Below are positions 27,593 to 64,000 of a stretch of DNA of 64,000 nucleotides, in pieces. The first letter of the stretch is position 1. Each line of letters begins with the position of its first letter. The position numbers were made by a program, and so were the translations under genes. A model generated the notes under the pieces. That model worked only from the letters and a program-made list of their open reading frames with translations. It had not been told where the DNA came from and did not search any database. This stretch comes from Sphingomonas horti (GTDB taxonomy: Bacteria; Pseudomonadota; Alphaproteobacteria; Sphingomonadales; Sphingomonadaceae), in contig NZ_WQMS01000006.1 in assembly GCF_009753715.1 (NCBI RefSeq), positions 248,001 to 312,000 on the forward strand, written 5' to 3'.

Positions 27593-28285
27593 TCAGACAG
27601 TCGCGACTTCCGCCACGTCCACCTTGATGCCCGGGCCCATCGAGGAGCTGAGCGCGACCTTCTTGACGTACTTGCCTTTGGCACCCGACGGTTTGGCCTT
27701 GACCACCGCGTCGACAAGCGCGTCGAAGTTCGCGCGCAGGTCCTCGGCCGGGAAAGACGCCTTGCCGATGCCGGAATGGATGATACCGGCCTTTTCGACG
27801 CGGTATTCGACCTGGCCGCCCTTGGCGTCCTTGACCGCCTGGCCGACGTTCATCGTGACCGTGCCGAGCTTCGGGTTCGGCATCAGGCCCTTCGGGCCCA
27901 GCACCTTACCGAGGCGGCCGACCAGACCCATCATGTCGGGCGTGGCGATGCAGCGATCGAAATCGATATTGCCGCCCTGCACGGTTTCCAGCAGGTCCTC
28001 CGCGCCGACGATGTCGGCCCCGGCCTCGCGCGCCTCGTCGGCCTTCGCACCCTTGGCGAAGACGGCCACGCGGACGGTCTTGCCGGTGCCCTTGGGCAGA
28101 GTGACCACGCCGCGGACCATCTGGTCGGCATGGCGCGGATCGACGCCCAGGTTCAGCGCGACTTCGATCGTCTCGTCGAACTTGGCGGTCGCATATTGCT
28201 TGGCGAGGGCGATCGCCTCGTCGACGCCGTAGAGCTTCTCGGCGTCGACGGCCCAGCTCTTCTGCTTCTTGGTCAGCTTCGCCAT
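27593..28285 (-). CDS. rplA: 50S ribosomal protein L1
   Basis: rRNA-binding protein and probable translational repressor of the L11 operon; 230 residues. Canonical [69 protein letters not shown] and [15 protein letters not shown]. It follows rplK by 4 bases on the minus strand and is ended by a clear terminator. Confidence 0.98.
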
Positions 28286-28289
28286 GGTC

Positions 28290-28721
28290 TTAACCCTCCA
28301 CCACTTCGAGGCCCATGGCGCGGGCGGAGCCTTCGATGATCTTCGTTGCAGCCTCGATATTGTTCGCGTTCAGGTCCTTCATCTTGACCTGCGCGATCTC
28401 GGCCAGCTGCGAGCGCTTGATGCGGCCCGCCGAGGTCTTGCCCGGCTCTTTGGAGCCCGACTTCAGGTTCGCCGCCTTCTTCAGAAGGAAGGTGGCCGGC
28501 GGCGTCTTGGTCTCGAACGAGAAGCTGCGATCGGCATAGACGGTGATGACCGTCGGGATCGGCGCGCCCTTTTCCAGGTCGTTCGTGGCGGCGTTGAACG
28601 CCTTGCAGAACTCCATGATGTTGACGCCGCGCTGACCCAGCGCCGGGCCGATCGGCGGCGACGGATTGGCGGCGCCGGCGGGCACCTGCAGCTTGATATA
28701 GCCGGTAATCTTCTTTGCCAT
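28290..28721 (-). CDS. rplK: 50S ribosomal protein L11
   Basis: 143 residues: [46 protein letters not shown], with the proline-rich thiostrepton-site segment, and C-terminal RNA-binding [36 protein letters not shown] 28721 has AAGAGAG upstream. In most bacteria nusG directly precedes it; here nusG is 3.1 kb away with unrelated genes between. Confidence 0.98.
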
Positions 28722-28943
28722 GTCACTCTCTTTCAAGTCGAGCGGTACAGACGGACGCGCAAGCACGCCCTCCCGCAATGTTCCAGAGCTGTCGCTTGGA
28801 AGCGCGGGCCCTTAGCCGAAAATCGGGCGGAAGGGAACAGCTTCCTTCGCAGCGCGATCGATCGCTGATCCGCAGTCGCCCGGCTGTGGCCTAACAGCCT
28901 AGGGTTGCGAACGATTGTTCTTCGCCCGTATCAACCGCGCCCC

Positions 28944-30179
28944 ATGGCCCTTTTTCCCCGCTTCGAACACCGCGCGGTGCCGATCGCGCTCGCGGCGGTC
29001 ACTATCGACGTGATCGGGTTCGGCATCGTGATGCCGGTGCTGCCGACGCTGATCACGGATCTGGGCCGCGTCGACCTGGCCGCGGCGACGCGGATCGCCG
29101 GGTGGATGCTGGCCGTGTTCGCGGTCACGCAGTTCCTGGCCGGGCCGGTGCTCGGCAACCTTGGAGACCGCTACGGCCGGCGACCCGTGCTGATCGCGGC
29201 GATGACGGCGTTCGCGGTCGATTATGCGCTGATGGCGGTCGCGCCGACGATCGCCTGGCTGTTCCTGGGGCGCGCGATTGCCGGCATCACCGGCGCCACC
29301 TTCGGCCCGGTCGGCGCGGTGATCGCGGACGTGACCCCGCCCGAGCGGCGCGCCACCAATTTCGGCTATCTGGGCGCGGCGTTCGGCATCGGCTTCATCG
29401 TCGGACCGGCGCTGGGTGGACTCGTCGCGACCTTCGGGCCGCGCGCGCCGTTCTGGCTCGCATGCGCGCTGGCCGTCGCCAACGCCGTCGCGATGTACTT
29501 CCTGCTGCCGGAGACGCTTGCCGCCGAGAACCGCCGGCCGTTCGCGCTGCGCGACGCGCATGTGATCGGCGCGTTCAAGCCGCTGTTCGCAGCCGGCAAC
29601 GCGACGCCGCTGCTGGTCGCCTGGTTCCTGTGGCAGCTGGGCGGGGTAGTCTATCCGACCACTTGGGCGTTCTGGGCCAAATTGCGCTTCGACTGGACCG
29701 ACGCGCAGATCGGCTGGAGCCTGGCCTGGGTCGGTTTCCTCCAGCTGCTGGTGCAATTGTTCCTGACCGATCGCGTCATCAGGCGGACGGGGGAGCGCGG
29801 GGCCGCGATCATCGGTCTGGCCTGTGGGGCTGCGACGCTGGTCATCTATGCGTTCGTCACCCAGGGCTGGCAGGTCTATGCCTTTTTCCTGATCGGCTGC
29901 CTCGGCGCGCTGGCATGGCCGGCGCTGAACGGCATCCTGTCGCGGATGGTCGATGCAAGCCGGCAAGGGGCACTGCAGGGCGGCATCGGCAGCATGAATT
30001 CGGTCGCGGCGGTGCTGGGGCCGCTGATCGCGTCGCAAAGCCTGGCCTGGGGCGCGCGCCACTCGTTCGATGGCGCCGCCTTCATCGTTGCCGGCACGCT
30101 GATCGGCGCGGCCACGGCGATCGTGCTGCTGGGCGTGCCGCGCCTGCACTATGCCGCCGCCGGCGAAGCAATCCGATAG
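28944..30179 (+). CDS. MFS transporter, TetA/DHA1-like
   Basis: Twelve-helix inner-membrane exporter, 411 residues. Motif A is GNLGDRYGRRPVLIA, motif C-like GAAFGIGFIVGPALGG, and the N-terminal AAVTIDVIGFGIVMPVLPTLI is typical of the tetracycline-efflux (TetA) subfamily. Chromosomal sphingomonad members of this group are common and need not confer resistance; the substrate is unknown. ATG 28944 has no visible Shine-Dalgarno; TTG 28905 would add 13 residues that do not look like part of the family. Divergent from rplK. Confidence 0.9.
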   Translation: MALFPRFEHRAVPIALAAVTIDVIGFGIVMPVLPTLITDLGRVDLAAATRIAGWMLAVFAVTQFLAGPVLGNLGDRYGRRPVLIAAMTAFAVDYALMAVAPTIAWLFLGRAIAGITGATFGPVGAVIADVTPPERRATNFGYLGAAFGIGFIVGPALGGLVATFGPRAPFWLACALAVANAVAMYFLLPETLAAENRRPFALRDAHVIGAFKPLFAAGNATPLLVAWFLWQLGGVVYPTTWAFWAKLRFDWTDAQIGWSLAWVGFLQLLVQLFLTDRVIRRTGERGAAIIGLACGAATLVIYAFVTQGWQVYAFFLIGCLGALAWPALNGILSRMVDASRQGALQGGIGSMNSVAAVLGPLIASQSLAWGARHSFDGAAFIVAGTLIGAATAIVLLGVPRLHYAAAGEAIR

Positions 30180-30210
30180 CCGGGACCGGACTGCTCCGCC
30201 GCGCCGATCC

Positions 30211-30483
30211 TCAGTCGAACAGCTCGGCCAGGAACGACTTGCGCTTGTAATGATGCTTGTCGCGGTAGTCGCCGCGCTCGTGGCGCGGGATTCCGGTGAC
30301 CACCGAGGCCGGGGTCTGCGCCGGCGCGCTCCGCTCGATGATCTTGTCGATCTCGCCGCGATCGAGCCAAACGCCGCGGCAGGCCGGGCAATAGTCGATC
30401 TCGATCCCTTGCCGGTCAGACATGACAAGCACCGTCCCGTCGACCGGGCAGGTCATCGACGCCATCTGCTGGGGGGTGCGCAT
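30211..30483 (-). CDS. Zinc-ribbon (zf-TFIIB) domain protein
   Basis: 90 residues. CPVDGTVLVMSDRQGIEIDYCPACRGVWLDRGEIDKIIE has the Cys4 zinc ribbon (C-P-x-D, C-P-x-C) and the WLDRGEL-type ending of the TFIIB-type family. The C-terminal HHYKRKSFLAELFD is basic, then hydrophobic. Role unknown; it probably binds zinc and nucleic acid or protein. GGGAGG precedes ATG 30483. It lies 4 bases after the DUF465 gene, so the two form a unit. Confidence 0.88.
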   Translation of the reverse strand: MRTPQQMASMTCPVDGTVLVMSDRQGIEIDYCPACRGVWLDRGEIDKIIERSAPAQTPASVVTGIPRHERGDYRDKHHYKRKSFLAELFD

Positions 30484-30486
30484 CGC

Positions 30487-30660
30487 TCAGGCCCTCCCGC
30501 CGCTCAGGCGGCGGCCGGCGAGCCGGTCCTTGATCGCCAGCCGCAGCTTCTTCAGCCGCAAAAGCCGAATGCTGTCGGGGAAGCGCCGCTTGAGCTCTCG
30601 CCGGATCTCGTCGTCCAGCTTCCTGTGGGTGAGGGTCAGTCGGTAAATGAAAGCGTTCAT
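30487..30660 (-). CDS. DUF465/YdcH family small protein
   Basis: 57 residues. MNAFIYRLTLTHRKLDDEIRRELKRRFPDSIRLLRLKKLRLAIKDRL matches the YdcH (DUF465) pattern of a short basic coiled coil (H..LD..I..E......D...L..LKK..L..KD.L). ATG 30660 has AAAGAGG upstream. Co-transcribed with the zinc-ribbon gene. A copy of the conserved leader element lies about 88 bases upstream. Confidence 0.85.
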   Translation of the reverse strand: MNAFIYRLTLTHRKLDDEIRRELKRRFPDSIRLLRLKKLRLAIKDRLAGRRLSGGRA

Positions 30661-30747
30661 AGCCTCTTTCCAATCGATAAGGATCGATCGGGAGCGCCGC
30701 GAGGCAGGAGGGGCGAAACATCGCAACCTGCATCGGGAGCTATTCCC

Positions 30748-30833
30748 GATGCGGTCCGACATCACGGCCGTTCATCGAACGGCCGCCAGAGGGGCCCGGT
30801 CCGCAGTCTCAATTTATGACCGGGCCCCGAAGA
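30748..30833 (-). promoter_or_regulatory. Copy A of a conserved structured leader element (candidate cis-RNA)
   Basis: On the minus strand this segment holds: an 11-base hairpin (GGGGCCCGGTC with GACCGGGCCCC, loop containing TAAAT), then CTCTGGC, a second hairpin (nine pairs, loop at about 30772-30774), and GTGATGTCGGACCGCATC. The core 30748-30803 is shared with copy B upstream of terC (19 identical bases at one side, 16 at the other), and the middle hairpin shows a G-C to A-T compensatory change between copies. It sits after the terC stop and in the leader of the DUF465/zinc-ribbon unit. Confidence 0.6.
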
Positions 30834-30834
30834 T

Positions 30835-31647
30835 TCAACCCTGGGGAAAGTGCGTAGGAGGTTCGGCGGCCGCCGCCAGCGCCGCCCGCTTGTTGCGGGA
30901 CCAGATGTTCAGCGCCTCGACCGCGGCGGAGAAGGCCATGGCCGTGTAGATATAGCCCTTCGGCACATGCACGCCGAAGCCGTCTGCGATCAGCACGGCG
31001 CCGATCATCAGCAGGAACCCGAGCGCCAGCATCACCACCGTCGGGTTGCGGTTGATGAAGTTCGCCATCGGCTCGGCCGCGAACAGCATCACCAGCACCG
31101 CGCACACCACCGCGACCACCATGACCGGAAGATGCTCGGTCATGCCGACCGCGGTCAGGATCGAATCGACGGAAAAGACGAGGTCCAGCACCAGGATCTG
31201 CACGATCGCGGCACCGAACGAGAGGCCGGCGCGGGCGACGTCGAACACGTCGTCGTTCGGCCGCGGATCGGCATTATGGTGGATTTCCTTGGTCGCCTTC
31301 CACACCAGGAACAGGCCGCCGACGATCAGGATCAGGTCCCGCCACGAGAATTGGGTCTCGAAGCTCGGCTCGCCATAGGCGCTGGGGGAGCCCTGCAGGC
31401 CCAGGTCGAAGACCGGCGCGGTCAGGCCGACCAGCCAGCTGATCGCGGACAGCAGCGCCAGGCGCATGAACAGCGCCAGGCCGATGCCCAGCCGCCGCGC
31501 CTTTCTGCGCTGGTGCTCCGGCAGCTTGTTGGTCAGGATGGAGATGAAGATCAGGTTGTCGATGCCGAGCACGACTTCCATGACCACGAGCGCGGTCAGC
31601 GCGGCCCATACGCTGGGGTCGCTGAACAGGGCAATCAATCCGTCCAT
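30835..31647 (-). CDS. TerC family integral membrane protein
   Basis: 270 residues, seven or more hydrophobic segments: [37 protein letters not shown] with the conserved acidic residues in [11 protein letters not shown], and later [14 protein letters not shown], the second TerC acidic motif. TerC proteins are linked to tellurite resistance and to manganese export with metal-loading of exoenzymes. ATG 31647 has AGAGGAG 11 bases upstream. A candidate regulatory RNA overlaps this leader. Confidence 0.92.
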
Positions 31648-31669
31648 CGGTTTAGGCGCTCCTCTGAGA

Positions 31670-31745
31670 GATGCGGTCCGACATCACGACCGTCATGGTC
31701 GCCAGAGGGGCCCGGCCCGCGCCCGCCATTTACGTGGCGGCGCGG
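31670..31745 (-). promoter_or_regulatory. Copy B of the structured leader element, terC 5' leader
   Basis: The core is 31670-31719, in the same orientation as copy A. Elements on the minus strand: hairpin GCCA-CGTAAA-TGGC with flanking GC pairs, GGGCCCCTCTGGC, hairpin CGACC-loop-GGTCG, and GTGATGTCGGACCGCATC. The CCTCTG (31708-31703) is complementary to CAGAGG (31666-31661) that forms the terC ribosome-binding site, so the element could switch the site between free and sequestered states. Structure read by eye; ligand unknown. Confidence 0.6.
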
Positions 31746-31799
31746 ACGGCTTCAAGGGTGGAAAAAGGGCGAGGGCGGCGGCCGCCGGCCCTCAGGCCG

Positions 31800-32339
31800 T
31801 CACTTCGCGCGTTCGACCTGCTCGAACTCCAGCTCGACCGGCGTCGCGCGGCCGAAGATCGACACGCTGACCTTGACGCGGCTGCGGTCGAAATCGAGCT
31901 CCTCGACGACCCCATTGAAGCTGGCGAACGGTCCGTCCAGCACCTTCACCTGGTCGCCGATCTCGTAATCGACCTTGACCTTGGCCTTGGGCGCGGCGGA
32001 CGCGGCCTCTTCCTTGGTGCTCAGGATGCGCGCGGCCTCGGCCTCGCTGATCGGCTGCGGCTTGTTGTTGGTGCCAAGGAAGCCGGTGACCTTCGGCGTG
32101 TTCTTGACGAGGTGATAAACGTCGTCGTTCATCTCGAGCTTGGCGAGGACGTAGCCGGGGAAGAATTTCCGTTCCGACTGCACCTTCTTGCCGCGGCGGA
32201 CTTCGGTGACGGTCTCGGTCGGCACCTCGACATGCTCGACCAGCCGCTCGAGTCCCATGCGGGTCGCCTCGGCCATGATCGCGTCGCGGACCTTGTTCTC
32301 GAAACCGGAATAGGCGTGGATGATGTACCAGCGGGACAT
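31800..32339 (-). CDS. nusG: Transcription termination/antitermination factor NusG
   Basis: 179 residues: NGN domain MSRWYIIHAYSGFENKVRDAI...FFPGYVLAKLEMNDDVYHLVKNTPKVTGFLG and KOW domain IGDQVKVLDGPFASFNGVVEELDFDRSRVKVSVSIFGRATPVELEF. It couples RNA polymerase to Rho and ribosomes. ATG 32339; secE lies 20 bases upstream. Confidence 0.97.
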   Translation of the reverse strand: MSRWYIIHAYSGFENKVRDAIMAEATRMGLERLVEHVEVPTETVTEVRRGKKVQSERKFFPGYVLAKLEMNDDVYHLVKNTPKVTGFLGTNNKPQPISEAEAARILSTKEEAASAAPKAKVKVDYEIGDQVKVLDGPFASFNGVVEELDFDRSRVKVSVSIFGRATPVELEFEQVERAK

Positions 32340-32359
32340 GGGGTGCGCTTCCTGAAAGG

Positions 32360-32557
32360 TTAGCCGGCGAAGGTCAGCAGCGAATGGACGATCGCGCTGA
32401 ACAGGGAATCGATGCCGAAGAAGAAGATGCCGAGCATCGCGGTCATGATGATCACCATCAGCGAGGTCATCATCGTCTCGCGGCTGCTCGGCCAGACGAC
32501 CTTCGCGGTCTCTGCGCGGACCTGCTGCACGAACTGGGGAATGTCGCCGATCTTCAT
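32360..32557 (-). CDS. secE: Preprotein translocase subunit SecE
   Basis: Single-span subunit of the SecYEG channel, 65 residues: FVQQVRAETAKVVWPSSRETMMTSLMVIIMTAMLGIFFFGIDSLFSAIVH with the conserved KVxWPSRxET amphipathic helix before the membrane helix. ATG 32557 or a GTG at 32563 could be the start; no strong Shine-Dalgarno separates them. It forms a unit with nusG. Confidence 0.95.
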   Translation of the reverse strand: MKIGDIPQFVQQVRAETAKVVWPSSRETMMTSLMVIIMTAMLGIFFFGIDSLFSAIVHSLLTFAG

Positions 32558-32723
32558 CGCCACTGTGTCTCGTCCCGTCTTCGGGGTGAACGCCCCCGTC
32601 CGGGCCGGCGCCCGAGGGATGCTTCACCGATGTAGTGAGATTGAGCCGCGCTATAAAGTGGGCCGCGCGGCGAAGCAAGCCGGGCGCTTGCGCATCCGCA
32701 AGGGCGCGGCTACATCGCCCGCC

Positions 32724-60452: not shown

Positions 60453-63400
60453 TTGAACGTACATAACCCGCGCGAGTTCGCCGAACGGCGTCAGCTCGTC
60501 AGTGCGCTCCGCAGCTTGAGGCGGGGCGATTTTACCGTCCGCCTGCCCGAGGACGATCCCGATTTCGACAGCGAGATCGCGACTTTGTTCAACGAAGTGG
60601 TCGGGATGAACCAGGATATCACGGCCGAGTTCGAGCGGCTCTCCGCCGTGGTCGGCAAGGAAGGCAAGATCACGCAGCGCGCGCGGGTGCGCGGTGCGAC
60701 CGGCGGCTGGGAAACCAAGCTGCGCGCGGTCAACGAGCTGATCGACGACATGGTCCAGCCGACCGCCGAAGTCAGCCGCGTCATCGGCGCGGTGGCCAAA
60801 GGCGACCTTTCGCAGGCAATGGCGGTCGAGATCGACGGGCGGCCGCTCCGCGGCGAATTCCTCCGCATCGGCAAGGTCGTGAACACGATGGTCGAGCAGC
60901 TCGCCTCGTTCACGGCGGAAGTGACGCGCGTGGCGCGCGAGGTCGGTACCGAGGGCAAGCTGGGCGGCCAGGCGAACGTGAAGGGCGTCGCCGGCACCTG
61001 GAAGGACCTGACCGACAACGTCAACGCGATGGCGACGAACCTGACCGCGCAGGTCCGCAACATCGCCGAAGTGACGACCGCCGTCGCCTCGGGCGACCTG
61101 TCGAAGAAGATCACCGTCGACGTGAAGGGCGAGATCCTGGAGCTGAAGAACACCATCAACACGATGGTGGACCAGCTGAACTCGTTCGCCTCCGAAGTGA
61201 CGCGCGTTGCGCGCGAAGTGGGTACCGAAGGCAAATTGGGCGGCCAGGCGCGGGTGGAAGGTGTCGCCGGGACCTGGGCCGATCTGACCGACAACGTGAA
61301 CCTGATGGCCGACAACCTGACCGGCCAGGTCCGCAACATCGCCGAAGTGACGACCGCCGTCGCCTCGGGCGACTTGTCCAAGAAGATCACCGTCGACGTG
61401 AAGGGCGAAATCCTCGAGCTGAAGAACACCATCAACACGATGGTGGACCAGCTGAACGGCTTCGCATCCGAAGTGACGCGCGTGGCGCGCGAGGTCGGCA
61501 CCGAAGGCAAATTGGGCGGGCAGGCGCAGGTGCCCGGCGTCGGCGGCACCTGGAAGGACCTGACCGACAACGTGAACCTGATGGCCGACAACCTGACCGG
61601 CCAGGTCCGCAACATCGCCGAGGTCACCACCGCGGTGGCGCTGGGCGATCTGTCCAAGAAGATCACGGTCGACGTGAAGGGCGAGATCCTTGAGCTGAAG
61701 AACACCATCAACGTGATGGTGGACCAGTTGAACGGCTTCGCCAGCGAAGTGACGCGCGTGGCGCGCGAGGTCGGCACGGAAGGGAAGCTCGGCGGTCAGG
61801 CGAACGTGCCGGGCGTCGCCGGCACCTGGAAGGACCTGACCGACAACGTCAACCTGATGGCCGACAATCTGACCGGTCAGGTCCGCAACATCGCCGAGGT
61901 GACGACGGCGGTGGCGCGCGGCGACCTGTCGAAGAAGATCACGGTCGAGGTGCGCGGCGAAATCCTCGCGCTCAAGGACACCATCAACGTGATGGTGGAC
62001 CAGCTGAACGGCTTCGCATCCGAAGTGACGCGCGTGGCGCGCGAAGTGGGTTCGGAAGGCAAGCTTGGCGGTCAGGCGCGGGTGGAAGGCGTCGCCGGCA
62101 CCTGGGCCGACCTGACCGACAGCGTGAACCTGATGGCCGGCAACCTGACCGCACAGGTCCGCAACATCGCCGACGTGACGACCGCGGTTGCGCGCGGCGA
62201 CTTGTCGAAGAAGATCACCGTCGACGTGAAGGGCGAGATCCTGGAGCTGAAGGACACCATCAACGTGATGGTGGACCAGCTGAACTCCTTCGCGTCCGAA
62301 GTGACCCGCGTGGCGCGCGAGGTCGGCACCGAAGGCCGGCTGGGCGGGCAGGCGCAGGTGCCCGGCGTCGGCGGCACGTGGAAGGACCTGACCGACAACG
62401 TCAACGCGATGGCGGCGAACCTGACCGGCCAGGTCCGCAACATCGCCGAGGTCACCACCGCGGTGGCGCTGGGCGATCTGTCCAAGAAGATCACGGTCGA
62501 CGTGAAGGGCGAGATCCTTGAGCTGAAGAACACCATCAACGTGATGGTGGACCAGTTGAACGGCTTCGCCAGCGAAGTGACGCGCGTGGCGCGCGAGGTC
62601 GGCACGGAAGGGAAGCTCGGCGGTCAGGCGAACGTGCCGGGCGTCGCCGGCACCTGGAAGGACCTGACCGACAACGTCAACCTGATGGCCGACAATCTGA
62701 CCGGTCAGGTCCGCAACATCGCCGAGGTGACGACGGCGGTGGCGCGCGGCGACCTGTCGAAGAAGATCACGGTCGAGGTGCGCGGCGAAATCCTCGCGCT
62801 CAAGGACACCATCAACGTGATGGTGGACCAGCTGAACGGCTTCGCATCCGAAGTGACGCGCGTGGCGCGCGAAGTGGGTTCGGAAGGCAAGCTTGGCGGT
62901 CAGGCGCGGGTGGAAGGCGTCGCCGGCACCTGGGCCGACCTGACCGACAGCGTGAACCTGATGGCCGGCAACCTGACCGCACAGGTCCGCAACATCGCCG
63001 ACGTGACGACCGCGGTTGCGCGCGGCGACTTGTCGAAGAAGATCACCGTCGACGTGAAGGGCGAGATCCTGGAGCTGAAGGACACCATCAACGTGATGGT
63101 GGACCAGCTGAACTCCTTCGCGTCCGAAGTGACCCGCGTGGCGCGCGAGGTCGGCACCGAAGGCCGGCTGGGCGGGCAGGCGCAGGTGCCCGGCGTCGGC
63201 GGCACGTGGAAGGACCTGACCGACAACGTCAACGCGATGGCGGCGAACCTGACCGGCCAGGTCCGCAACATCGCCGAGGTGACGACCGCGGTGGCGCTGG
63301 GCGATCTGTCCAAGAAGATCACCGTCGACGTGAAGGGCGAGATCTTGGAGCTGAAGAACACCATCAACACGATGGTGGACCAGCTGAACTCGTTCGCGTC

Positions 63401-64000
63401 GGAAGTGACGCGCGTGGCGCGCGAGGTCGGCACCGAGGGCAAATTGGGCGGGCAGGCGCAGGTGCCGGGCGTCGCCGGCACCTGGAAGGACCTGACCGAC
63501 AACGTCAACCTGATGGCCGAGAACCTGACCGGCCAGGTCCGCAACATTGCCGACGTGACCACGGCCGTGGCGCGCGGCGATCTTTCCAAGAAGATCACCG
63601 TCGACGTGAAGGGCGAGATCCTCGCGCTCAAGGACACGATCAACGTGATGGTGGACCAGCTGAACGGGTTCGCCAGCGAAGTGACGCGCGTGGCGCGCGA
63701 GGTCGGCACCGACGGCAAATTGGGCGGCCAGGCCAACGTGCCCGGCGTCGGCGGCACCTGGAAGGACCTGACCGACAACGTCAACCTGATGGCGAACAAC
63801 CTGACCAACCAGGTGCGCGGCATCGCCGATGTCGTCACCGCGGTGGCGCAGGGGAACCTGAAGCGCAAGCTGACGCTGGACGCGAAGGGCGAGATCGCCG
63901 CGCTCGCCGAGACGATCAACTTCATGATCGAGACTTTGTCGACCTTCGGCGACCAAGTGACCAACATGGCCCGCGAGGTCGGCATCGAAGGGCGGCTGGG
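60453..64000 (+). CDS. Multi-HAMP signalling protein (hybrid kinase-type), truncated by window edge
   Basis: The plus-strand frame is open from ATG 60312 to base 64000 (no stop). TTG 60453 is chosen for its AGGAG 6 bases upstream. The N-terminal part ([44 protein letters not shown]) is HAMP-like, then from about 60957 come 11 copies of a 92-residue HAMP unit ([74 protein letters not shown]). No membrane segment. In this family (Nik1-like) a histidine kinase and receiver domains normally follow; they would lie beyond the window. Confidence 0.9.
60957..63990 (+). repeat. Eleven tandem 276-base HAMP-coding repeats
   Basis: Unit length 276 bases (92 codons), recognisable by gacctgaccgac at about 61006, 61282, 61558, 61834, 62110, 62386, 62662, 62938, 63214, 63490 and 63766. 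Within it, bases 61590-62452 appear identical to 62418-63280 (offset 828 = 3 units), as far as I could compare by eye. Confidence 0.85.

What the first reader, a model, noticed from the sequence alone, without database searches (positions are those of the whole stretch)
30748..31745. Duplicated structured leader element upstream of terC and of the DUF465/zinc-ribbon unit: candidate new cis-regulatory RNA
Two copies of one element lie about 0.92 kb apart in the same orientation, each in the 5' leader of a minus-strand gene set. Shared: gatgcggtccgacatcacg on one side and cgccagaggggcccgg on the other, with a hairpin between them whose loop differs but whose stem keeps pairing through a compensatory change (third pair G-C in copy A, A-T in copy B). 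A second hairpin with TAAAT in its loop follows in both. In copy B the conserved CCTCTG can pair with the CAGAGG of the terC ribosome site. TerC proteins are tied to manganese and tellurite, and the other controlled gene is a zinc ribbon, so metal sensing is a natural guess. It does not show the GGGGAGUAG and GAGACCUU loops of the yybP-ykoY manganese riboswitch. An alternative is a simple recombination duplication around terC.
Basis: partly seen in the sequence, partly recalled or inferred. Interest (0 to 1): 0.72.

Follow-up and report, generated by a model that had tools for sequence, protein, structure and literature searches.

The report
Two terC RNA leaders, wider regulon
The repeated element is a known kind of regulatory RNA (terC RNA) at the start of two neighbouring bacterial messages; its relatives also precede genes for proton, sodium and carbon-dioxide balance, which hints that it senses pH or ion stress rather than being a new RNA or a simple manganese sensor.

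Summary
Both copies match Rfam RF03067, "terC RNA" (66.4 and 59.4 bits; cut-off 39.9). I collected 245 relatives, mostly alphaproteobacterial, plus 120 named sites. The RNA has covarying stems P1 and P2 and a nearly invariant core CCGGGCCCCUCUG...GAUGUCGG. It lies just 5' of a sense gene (227 of 245), and a promoter-like signal lies just before P1, so "TAAAT" is probably a -10 box. The copies are not each other's nearest relatives.

Beyond the Rfam model: (1) in the window's family the 3' strand of P1 has a covarying downstream partner (copy A has it), a riboswitch-like alternative; copy B can cover its ribosome site with the conserved CCUCUG. (2) Targets besides terC: DUF465, alpha- and beta-carbonic anhydrase, NhaA, Bax1-I, TerB, and single cases such as the ATP-synthase inhibitor zeta. 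(3) 25 of 52 terC-RNA genomes of the class also carry the Mn riboswitch; in 22 of 24 loci read it precedes UPF0016-like or MntP genes, which do not follow terC RNA. This fits pH or ion stress better than Mn. The ligand is untested.

The parts
30747..30807 (-). Copy A of terC RNA (P1, P2, conserved internal loop), leader of DUF465 and zinc-ribbon genes
   Evidence: RF03067, 66.4 bits against cut-off 39.9
31669..31723 (-). Copy B of terC RNA, leader of terC
   Evidence: RF03067, 59.4 bits against cut-off 39.9
30730..30752 (-). Anti-P1 hairpin of copy A, GCAUCGGGA-AUAGC-UCCCGAUGC; its left arm contains part of the 3' strand of P1
   Evidence: sequence; in the predicted minimum-energy fold; partner in 73 of 86 GCAUCG-type sites, next pair covaries
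30662..30697 (-). Hairpin that overlaps the putative ribosome site AAAGAGG (30663-30669) of DUF465
   Evidence: predicted in both folds of copy A; long leaders of the window's family are unusually structured there
31659..31666 (-). Putative terC ribosome site CAGAGGAG, complementary to loop CCUCUG of copy B (31703-31708)
   Evidence: sequence; predicted minimum-energy fold
31703..31708 (-). CCUCUG of the conserved loop in copy B, possible anti-ribosome-site
30811..30838 (-). Putative promoter of copy A: TTGAAT (30838-30833), 16 bases, TAAATT (30816-30811); overlaps the end of terC
   Evidence: sequence and position-specific signal at relatives; not found by the strict scan
31727..31755 (-). 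Putative promoter of copy B: TTGAAG (31755-31750), 17 bases, TAAATG (31732-31727)
   Evidence: sequence and position-specific signal at relatives; not found by the strict scan
30835..31647 (-). terC (YgdQ/YkoY-like type, judged by eye), downstream of copy B
   Evidence: Pfam TerC, E 2.3e-49
30487..30660 (-). DUF465 gene, downstream of copy A
   Evidence: Pfam DUF465, E 1.5e-8 (reference 30487-30663 used)
30211..30483 (-). zinc-ribbon gene, second gene after copy A
   Evidence: Pfam Zn_ribbon_TFIIB, E 1.5e-17

Best explanation
Two copies of the known terC RNA each form the 5' end of their own transcript, one for terC (copy B) and one for DUF465 and the zinc ribbon (copy A). The RNA has a stem P1, a hairpin P2 and a nearly invariant internal loop, and works like a riboswitch. 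When P1 forms, the ribosome site is freed. When P1 is not held, copy A folds the 3' strand of P1 into a downstream anti-P1 hairpin, and copy B uses the conserved CCUCUG loop to cover the terC ribosome site CAGAGG. The targets point to a signal of pH or ion imbalance, most likely alkaline pH, possibly bicarbonate or a cation. Shown: family, position, covariation, the alternative pairing partners. Inferred: transcript starts, translational switching, its direction, and the signal.
For: Family membership. Covariation over 337 distinct sequences from 365 sites: P2 pair 5 is paired in 302 of 336 against a shuffled mean of 137, P1 outer pair 2 in 305 of 337 against 209; CCGGGCCCCUCUG exact in 316 of 337, GAUGUCGG in 325 of 337. 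Placement: a regulon-type coding sequence within 450 bases 3' in 227 of 245 sites, against 6 of 245 divergent on the 5' side (all from three divergent element pairs) and 3 of 245 sense on the 5' side (the families were defined from 3' genes, so only the direction is informative). Promoter-like signal at fixed distance: a two-box pattern in 46 of 361 against a shuffled mean of 3.75, maximum 7. Anti-P1 helix: 53 of 99 sites of the window's family beat their shuffles (about 4 expected); partner in 73 of 86 sites with a GCAUCG-type strand against a shuffled mean of 5.6, maximum 13, and 10 of 86 for the same pattern 60-91 bases away; next pair GC 42, AU 15, GU 5, mismatch 1 of 63. Copy A is close to bistable, -74.4 against -72.8 kcal/mol with P1 forced; copy B -38.1 with the ribosome site covered against -30.3. 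Long leaders of the window's family are more structured before the start codon than other genes (mean z -1.42, n 74, against -0.30, n 175). Targets. Separate Mn riboswitch before UPF0016 or MntP.
Against: No expression or binding data. Loop-to-ribosome-site pairing is not general: 13 of 15 Pseudomonas-group sites, but 6 of 57 other short leaders against 11 of 181 background genes, p = 0.2, and 4 of 130 long leaders. The anti-P1 helix is weaker outside the window's family (23 of 144, about 6 expected), and copy B lacks it. With P1 forced, copy A still keeps the hairpin over its ribosome site, so how P1 frees it is not explained. Long leaders outside the family are hardly more structured than background (z -0.46, n 50). 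The copy B element alone is not more stable than its shuffles (z 0.42). The strict promoter scan found none. TerC proteins are tied to Mn, and the E. coli alx riboswitch answers to Mn and to alkaline shock (PMC9603457, abstract), so pH and Mn are hard to separate.
Confidence: 0.5

Rival explanations
1. A Mn2+ (or other divalent metal) riboswitch, an alphaproteobacterial counterpart of yybP-ykoY.
For: TerC is the commonest target (120 of 227 sites); Na/Ca-exchanger and Ca-type P-ATPase genes also occur; TerC/Alx are linked to Mn export or metal delivery (PMC10550928, passages; PMC13274385, abstract); the own genome and the four other genomes of its family listed have no RF00080 match.
Against: 25 of 52 terC-RNA genomes of the class sample also have RF00080 at E 0.001 (7.6 expected if independent; 17 of 52 over the family cut-off). 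Of 24 of these 25 loci read, RF00080 precedes an UPF0016-like gene in 16 and MntP in 6; one has a cation-efflux gene and one looks like an exchanger (one UPF0016 member Pfam-tested). None of the terC-RNA target families followed RF00080 in the 20 loci tested. No UPF0016 gene was found within 1.5 kb 3' of 365 terC-RNA sites; MntP gave one match, antisense and 1.2 kb away (L167). Odds lowered from 0.22 to 0.17.
Confidence: 0.17
2. A leader bound by a regulatory protein or by another ligand, for example in envelope stress, with no direct ion or pH sensing.
For: Targets also include Bax1-I, Tim44-like, YegS, TerB and Usp genes, and single YdjM and DUF533 cases; I recall relatives of some as envelope-stress genes in E. 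coli.
Against: The conserved internal loop inside a covarying stem with a competing helix looks like an aptamer with an expression platform; a protein site is not excluded.
Confidence: 0.22
3. The inverted repeats are DNA operator sites for a transcription factor.
For: The element lies next to a promoter-like signal and GCATCG...CGATGC is an inverted repeat.
Against: Strand-specific placement (227 of 245 against 6 of 245), variable spacing between the anchors (12-61 bases), compensatory changes and G-U pairs fit RNA.
Confidence: 0.06
4. A mobile repeat or a recent recombination duplication around terC.
For: Two near-identical cores about 0.92 kb apart; the 60 bases upstream of the copies are more alike than usual (67 per cent, medians 35 and 37; ranks 4 and 6).
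Against: As elements they rank 41st and 35th to each other among 244; downstream flanks 52 per cent against medians of 48 and 47; only two copies in the genome; copies elsewhere sit in leaders.
Confidence: 0.03

Closest known systems
terC RNA, Rfam RF03067 (I recall it from Weinberg et al. 2017, which is not held)
   Same: Both copies match positions 1-59 of 59 above the gathering score; same core, P1 and P2; copy B is upstream of terC.
   Different: The 59-position model covers the element only; the anti-P1 helix and adjoining promoter-like signal lie outside it. Whether the original paper listed the targets beyond terC I could not check.
yybP-ykoY Mn2+ riboswitch, Rfam RF00080 (includes E. 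coli alx and mntP)
   Same: Controls TerC-family genes in other bacteria; the alx riboswitch answers to alkaline shock too (PMC9603457, abstract).
   Different: No match in the window or own genome; occurs separately in 25 of 52 terC-RNA genomes of the class sample, before other genes.
alx pH-responsive RNA element of E. coli
   Same: Works-like candidate: alternative folds of a TerC-family leader that govern translation (PMC3874183, abstract start in the search listing only).
   Different: RF03067 was the only cis-regulatory family matched in the window; no direct comparison with the alx leader was made.

Membership tests
terC RNA (RF03067) | covariance-model score at or above the gathering score of 39.9 bits | tested here: met
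   66.4 and 59.4 bits, positions 1-59 of 59
terC RNA (RF03067) | conserved core CCGGGCCCCUCUG ... GAUGUCGG with P1 and P2 | tested here: met
   both copies exact; family-wide counts
terC RNA (RF03067) | 5' of a protein gene in the same orientation | tested here: met
   21 bases between copy B and the terC start, 86 between copy A and the DUF465 start
terC RNA (RF03067) | experimentally shown regulation or ligand | not testable with these tools
   no such report seen in the listings
yybP-ykoY Mn riboswitch (RF00080) | covariance-model match | tested here: not met
   no match in the window at gathering score, in 30400-32000 at E up to 1, or in the own genome
ligand-binding riboswitch (class of mechanism) | mutually exclusive helices linking the sensor domain to gene expression | tested here: inconclusive
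   strong in the window's family (53 of 99), weaker elsewhere (23 of 144); no experiment
ligand-binding riboswitch (class of mechanism) | direct binding of a ligand or proton by the RNA | not testable with these tools
   needs in-line probing or calorimetry

The most novel reading that the evidence does not exclude
terC RNA is a widespread alkaline-pH (or bicarbonate) riboswitch of Alphaproteobacteria and Pseudomonas that co-ordinates TerC/Alx, NhaA, exported carbonic anhydrases, the ATP-synthase inhibitor zeta and Ca/H-type transporters as one ion- and proton-balance regulon, separate from the Mn riboswitch that runs the UPF0016 and MntP exporters in the same genomes.
Probability: 0.3. Interest if true: 0.82.

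Novelty: new member of a known kind. Interest (0 to 1): 0.5.

Why it matters
The two copies are new members of a described RNA family for which I found no reported ligand. The value lies in the survey: the target list, the separate Mn riboswitch in the same genomes and the competing helix give this RNA a short list of testable signals (pH, bicarbonate, Na/Li, Mn, Ca). If pH were confirmed it would be a proton-balance regulon run by an RNA across a large bacterial class, and it would give the DUF465 and zinc-ribbon genes a physiological context.

Tried and rejected
New RNA family: rejected by RF03067. Upstream TAAAT hairpin as a conserved part: rejected. Loop-to-ribosome-site pairing as the general mechanism: rejected. 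Over all sites 24 of 202 against 15 of 181 have 6 or more complementary bases, p = 0.16; at 7 or more 15 against 6, p = 0.06; at 8 or more 8 against 1, p = 0.027. A narrower scoring gave 23 of 202 against 11 of 181, p = 0.049, and 15 against 4 at 7 or more, p = 0.015; the signal came from the Pseudomonas group, whose 15 sites are close relatives, so their p-value is overstated. A first test of the downstream helix that began 11 bases after the element missed most of it (21 of 99 and 15 of 144 at p 0.05 or less); one search replaced it. Local duplication: not supported. Literature on this RNA's ligand: none seen; the library is partial and most listings were dominated by telomerase TERC or unrelated papers. 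The 2017 motif paper, the E. coli envelope-stress roles and the TerC subtype names are from memory.

Rows dropped or limits: could not parse 1 of 365 sites (L242) and merged identical sequences to 337. Searches used 243 of 245 sites. One search used 202 of 245 sites with a callable start. One search used 74 long leaders of the window's family and 50 others out of those 202. One search used 361 distinct upstream stretches and a simple letter shuffle. In one search the family named for a site is the one with most reference hits, which favours TerC, the largest cluster. First-gene families are clusters with one or two Pfam-tested representatives; 18 of 245 sites fell outside clusters of three or more. 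The single targets YdjM (L156) and CitMHS (L162) start some 250-435 bases or more from the element and are doubtful. Searches searched up to 1.5 kb; 343 of 365 sites have at least 1 kb.

Full report
What is there. On the minus strand two copies of one element lie about 0.92 kb apart: A (30807..30747) between terC and DUF465, and B (31723..31669) 21 bases before terC. A whole-window Rfam scan names both as RF03067, terC RNA, cis-regulatory: 66.4 and 59.4 bits against a gathering score of 39.9 (alignments). They are the only matches in the 3,350,026-base assembly. Downstream genes by Pfam: TerC, DUF465 and Zn_ribbon_TFIIB.

Distribution. RF03067 was found in 76 of 196 genomes of the order (101 matches by my sum of its rows), 52 of 385 of the class and 64 of 398 of the phylum; these samples overlap. 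The nine matching genomes outside the class all belong to one family, f199; the named sample contains several Pseudomonas records, so I take f199 to be Pseudomonas-like. The named sample also holds one Arenimonas MAG (L249) and one record labelled Bacillus subtilis (L352). I collected 245 sites (101 from the order search, 144 from the class and phylum searches) and 120 sites from 119 named stretches.

Structure. Over 337 distinct sequences the core CCGGGCCCCUCUG is exact in 316 and GAUGUCGG in 325. P2 pairs 1 to 7 and the outer P1 pairs 2 to 5 are paired more often than in any of 200 shuffles, most with several pair types. The P1 position next to CCGG is mostly U-A or a purine facing A and does not covary (118 of 337 paired, 114 after shuffling), nor do outer pairs 6 and 7. 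Shuffling does not remove relatedness, so the counts support the fold but are not independent events.

Placement. A regulon-type coding sequence lies within 450 bases 3' of the element in 227 of 245 sites. On the 5' side it does in 6 of 245 (divergent; these are the three divergent element pairs L112, L121, L160) and 3 of 245 (sense: the terC before copy A, the ZnR/DUF465 unit of L035, and L025). A second genome carries RNA-DUF465-ZnR-RNA-TerC in tandem (L011/L035). So neighbouring units can each carry their own copy. Upstream base composition shows a TTG-A-rich signal at -40 to -36 and an A/T-rich one at -18 to -13 from CCGG; a two-box pattern occurs in 46 of 361 against 3.75 after shuffling. 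TAAATT and TAAATG of the two window copies begin at -17. A strict consensus scan of the window stretch finds nothing, so the promoters rest on position and on the family signal.

Switch anatomy. In the window's family (f1, which I take to be Sphingomonadaceae) the 3' strand of P1 (GCAUCG) is followed by a partner CGAUGC or CGGUGC: 53 of 99 sites beat shuffles where about 4 would; outside it 23 of 144 where about 6 would. Among 86 sites of all groups with such a strand, 73 have the partner nearby (shuffled mean 5.6, maximum 13; 10 of 86 for the same pattern farther downstream), 62 of the 73 in the window's family; the next pair is GC 42, AU 15, GU 5 and mismatch 1 of 63. Copy A has it (30752-30730). 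Its fold with the anti-P1 helix (-74.4 kcal/mol) and the fold with P1 forced (-72.8) are nearly equal, and both keep a hairpin over the ribosome site. Long leaders of the family are unusually structured before the start codon. Copy B lacks the anti-P1 partner; its predicted fold covers CAGAGG with CCUCUG, -38.1 against -30.3 with P1 forced. In the Pseudomonas group 13 of 15 ribosome sites have 6 or more bases complementary to the loop; in other short leaders 6 of 57, not above background. The element therefore seems to be joined to different output devices in different lineages.

Regulon. In the 101 sites of the order search, DUF465 is the adjacent gene in 45 (my count), in many followed by an Alx-type TerC. 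Alpha-carbonic anhydrase follows in 15 and beta-carbonic anhydrase in 4. NhaA is found in 12, 10 of them behind DUF465. Over 245 sites the nearby family with most hits within 450 bases is TerC 120, DUF465 33, alpha-CA 15, ZnR 15, TerB 7, an unnamed lipoprotein 7, DUF4112 7, YegS 5, beta-CA 4, NhaA 3, Bax1-I 3, Na/Ca exchanger 3, Usp 3, Tim44 2. Single cases: ATP-synthase inhibitor zeta (L154), Ca-type P-ATPase (L181), DUF533 (L166), and the more distant YdjM (L156) and CitMHS (L162). The named sample repeats the pattern, with TerC most frequent and 10 of 120 unassigned.

Signal. The Mn riboswitch RF00080 occurs in 56 of 385 class genomes (42 over its cut-off), and in 25 of the 52 with terC RNA (7.6 expected if independent; 17 of 52 over the cut-off; lineage could explain the excess). 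I read the gene behind it in 24 of those 25 genomes: UPF0016-like in 16, MntP in 6, a cation-efflux gene in 1 and an exchanger-like gene in 1 (3 plus 1, 20; Pfam for the seven others, and for one UPF0016 member). In the 20 loci tested none of the terC-RNA target families, TerC included, follows RF00080. Conversely no UPF0016 gene was found 3' of 365 terC-RNA sites, and MntP only once, on the opposite strand about 1.2 kb away (L167). In the order sample MntP occurs in 16 of 196 genomes (13 over cut-off); by coordinates none lies near a terC RNA. Where both RNAs coexist they thus divide the genes, which argues for a signal other than plain Mn. Against it, none of the five genomes of the window's family listed, the window's own included, shows RF00080, so there the argument is indirect. 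The E. coli mntP and alx riboswitches link Mn with alkaline pH (PMC9603457, abstract), and Vibrio terC lies behind an Mn riboswitch (PMC13274385, abstract).

Conclusion. Identity as terC RNA is close to certain and cis-regulation very likely. Switching by mutually exclusive pairing is likely for copy A's lineage and plausible for copy B. pH or ion imbalance as the signal is the best-supported guess, at about 0.4 by itself. Literature searches gave no report of a ligand; a review of orphan riboswitches does not contain the word terC (PMC7266159, term search and passages).

Noticed in passing
window 60918-63860: Tandem array of 10.7 copies of a 276-base unit, 86 per cent matches; from memory the encoded unit resembles HAMP repeats of poly-HAMP sensor kinases.
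   Followed up: no
window 27593-32563: terC, DUF465, zinc-ribbon and a transporter gene lie between secE-nusG and rplK-rplA (genes named by eye); TerC proteins are reported to interact with SecYEG (PMC12096827, abstract start in search listing), so the neighbourhood may not be accidental.
   Followed up: no
L006, L042 (TerC) and L010 (NhaA), among other order-search sites: DUF465 is the first gene of units that continue with either Alx-type TerC or NhaA, which suggests a shared accessory role for this small protein.
   Followed up: partly
L112, L121, L160: Divergent pairs of terC RNAs back to back, one before a TerC gene and one before a DUF4112 gene.
   Followed up: partly
L036, L041, L055, L057, L061, L079, L096: A lipoprotein-like family (AWGEGIVAIGQ) behind terC RNA; the one member scanned (L041) had no Pfam match.
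   Followed up: partly
L352: A record titled Bacillus subtilis carries the element in the named sample; probably a mislabelled or contaminated assembly.
   Followed up: no
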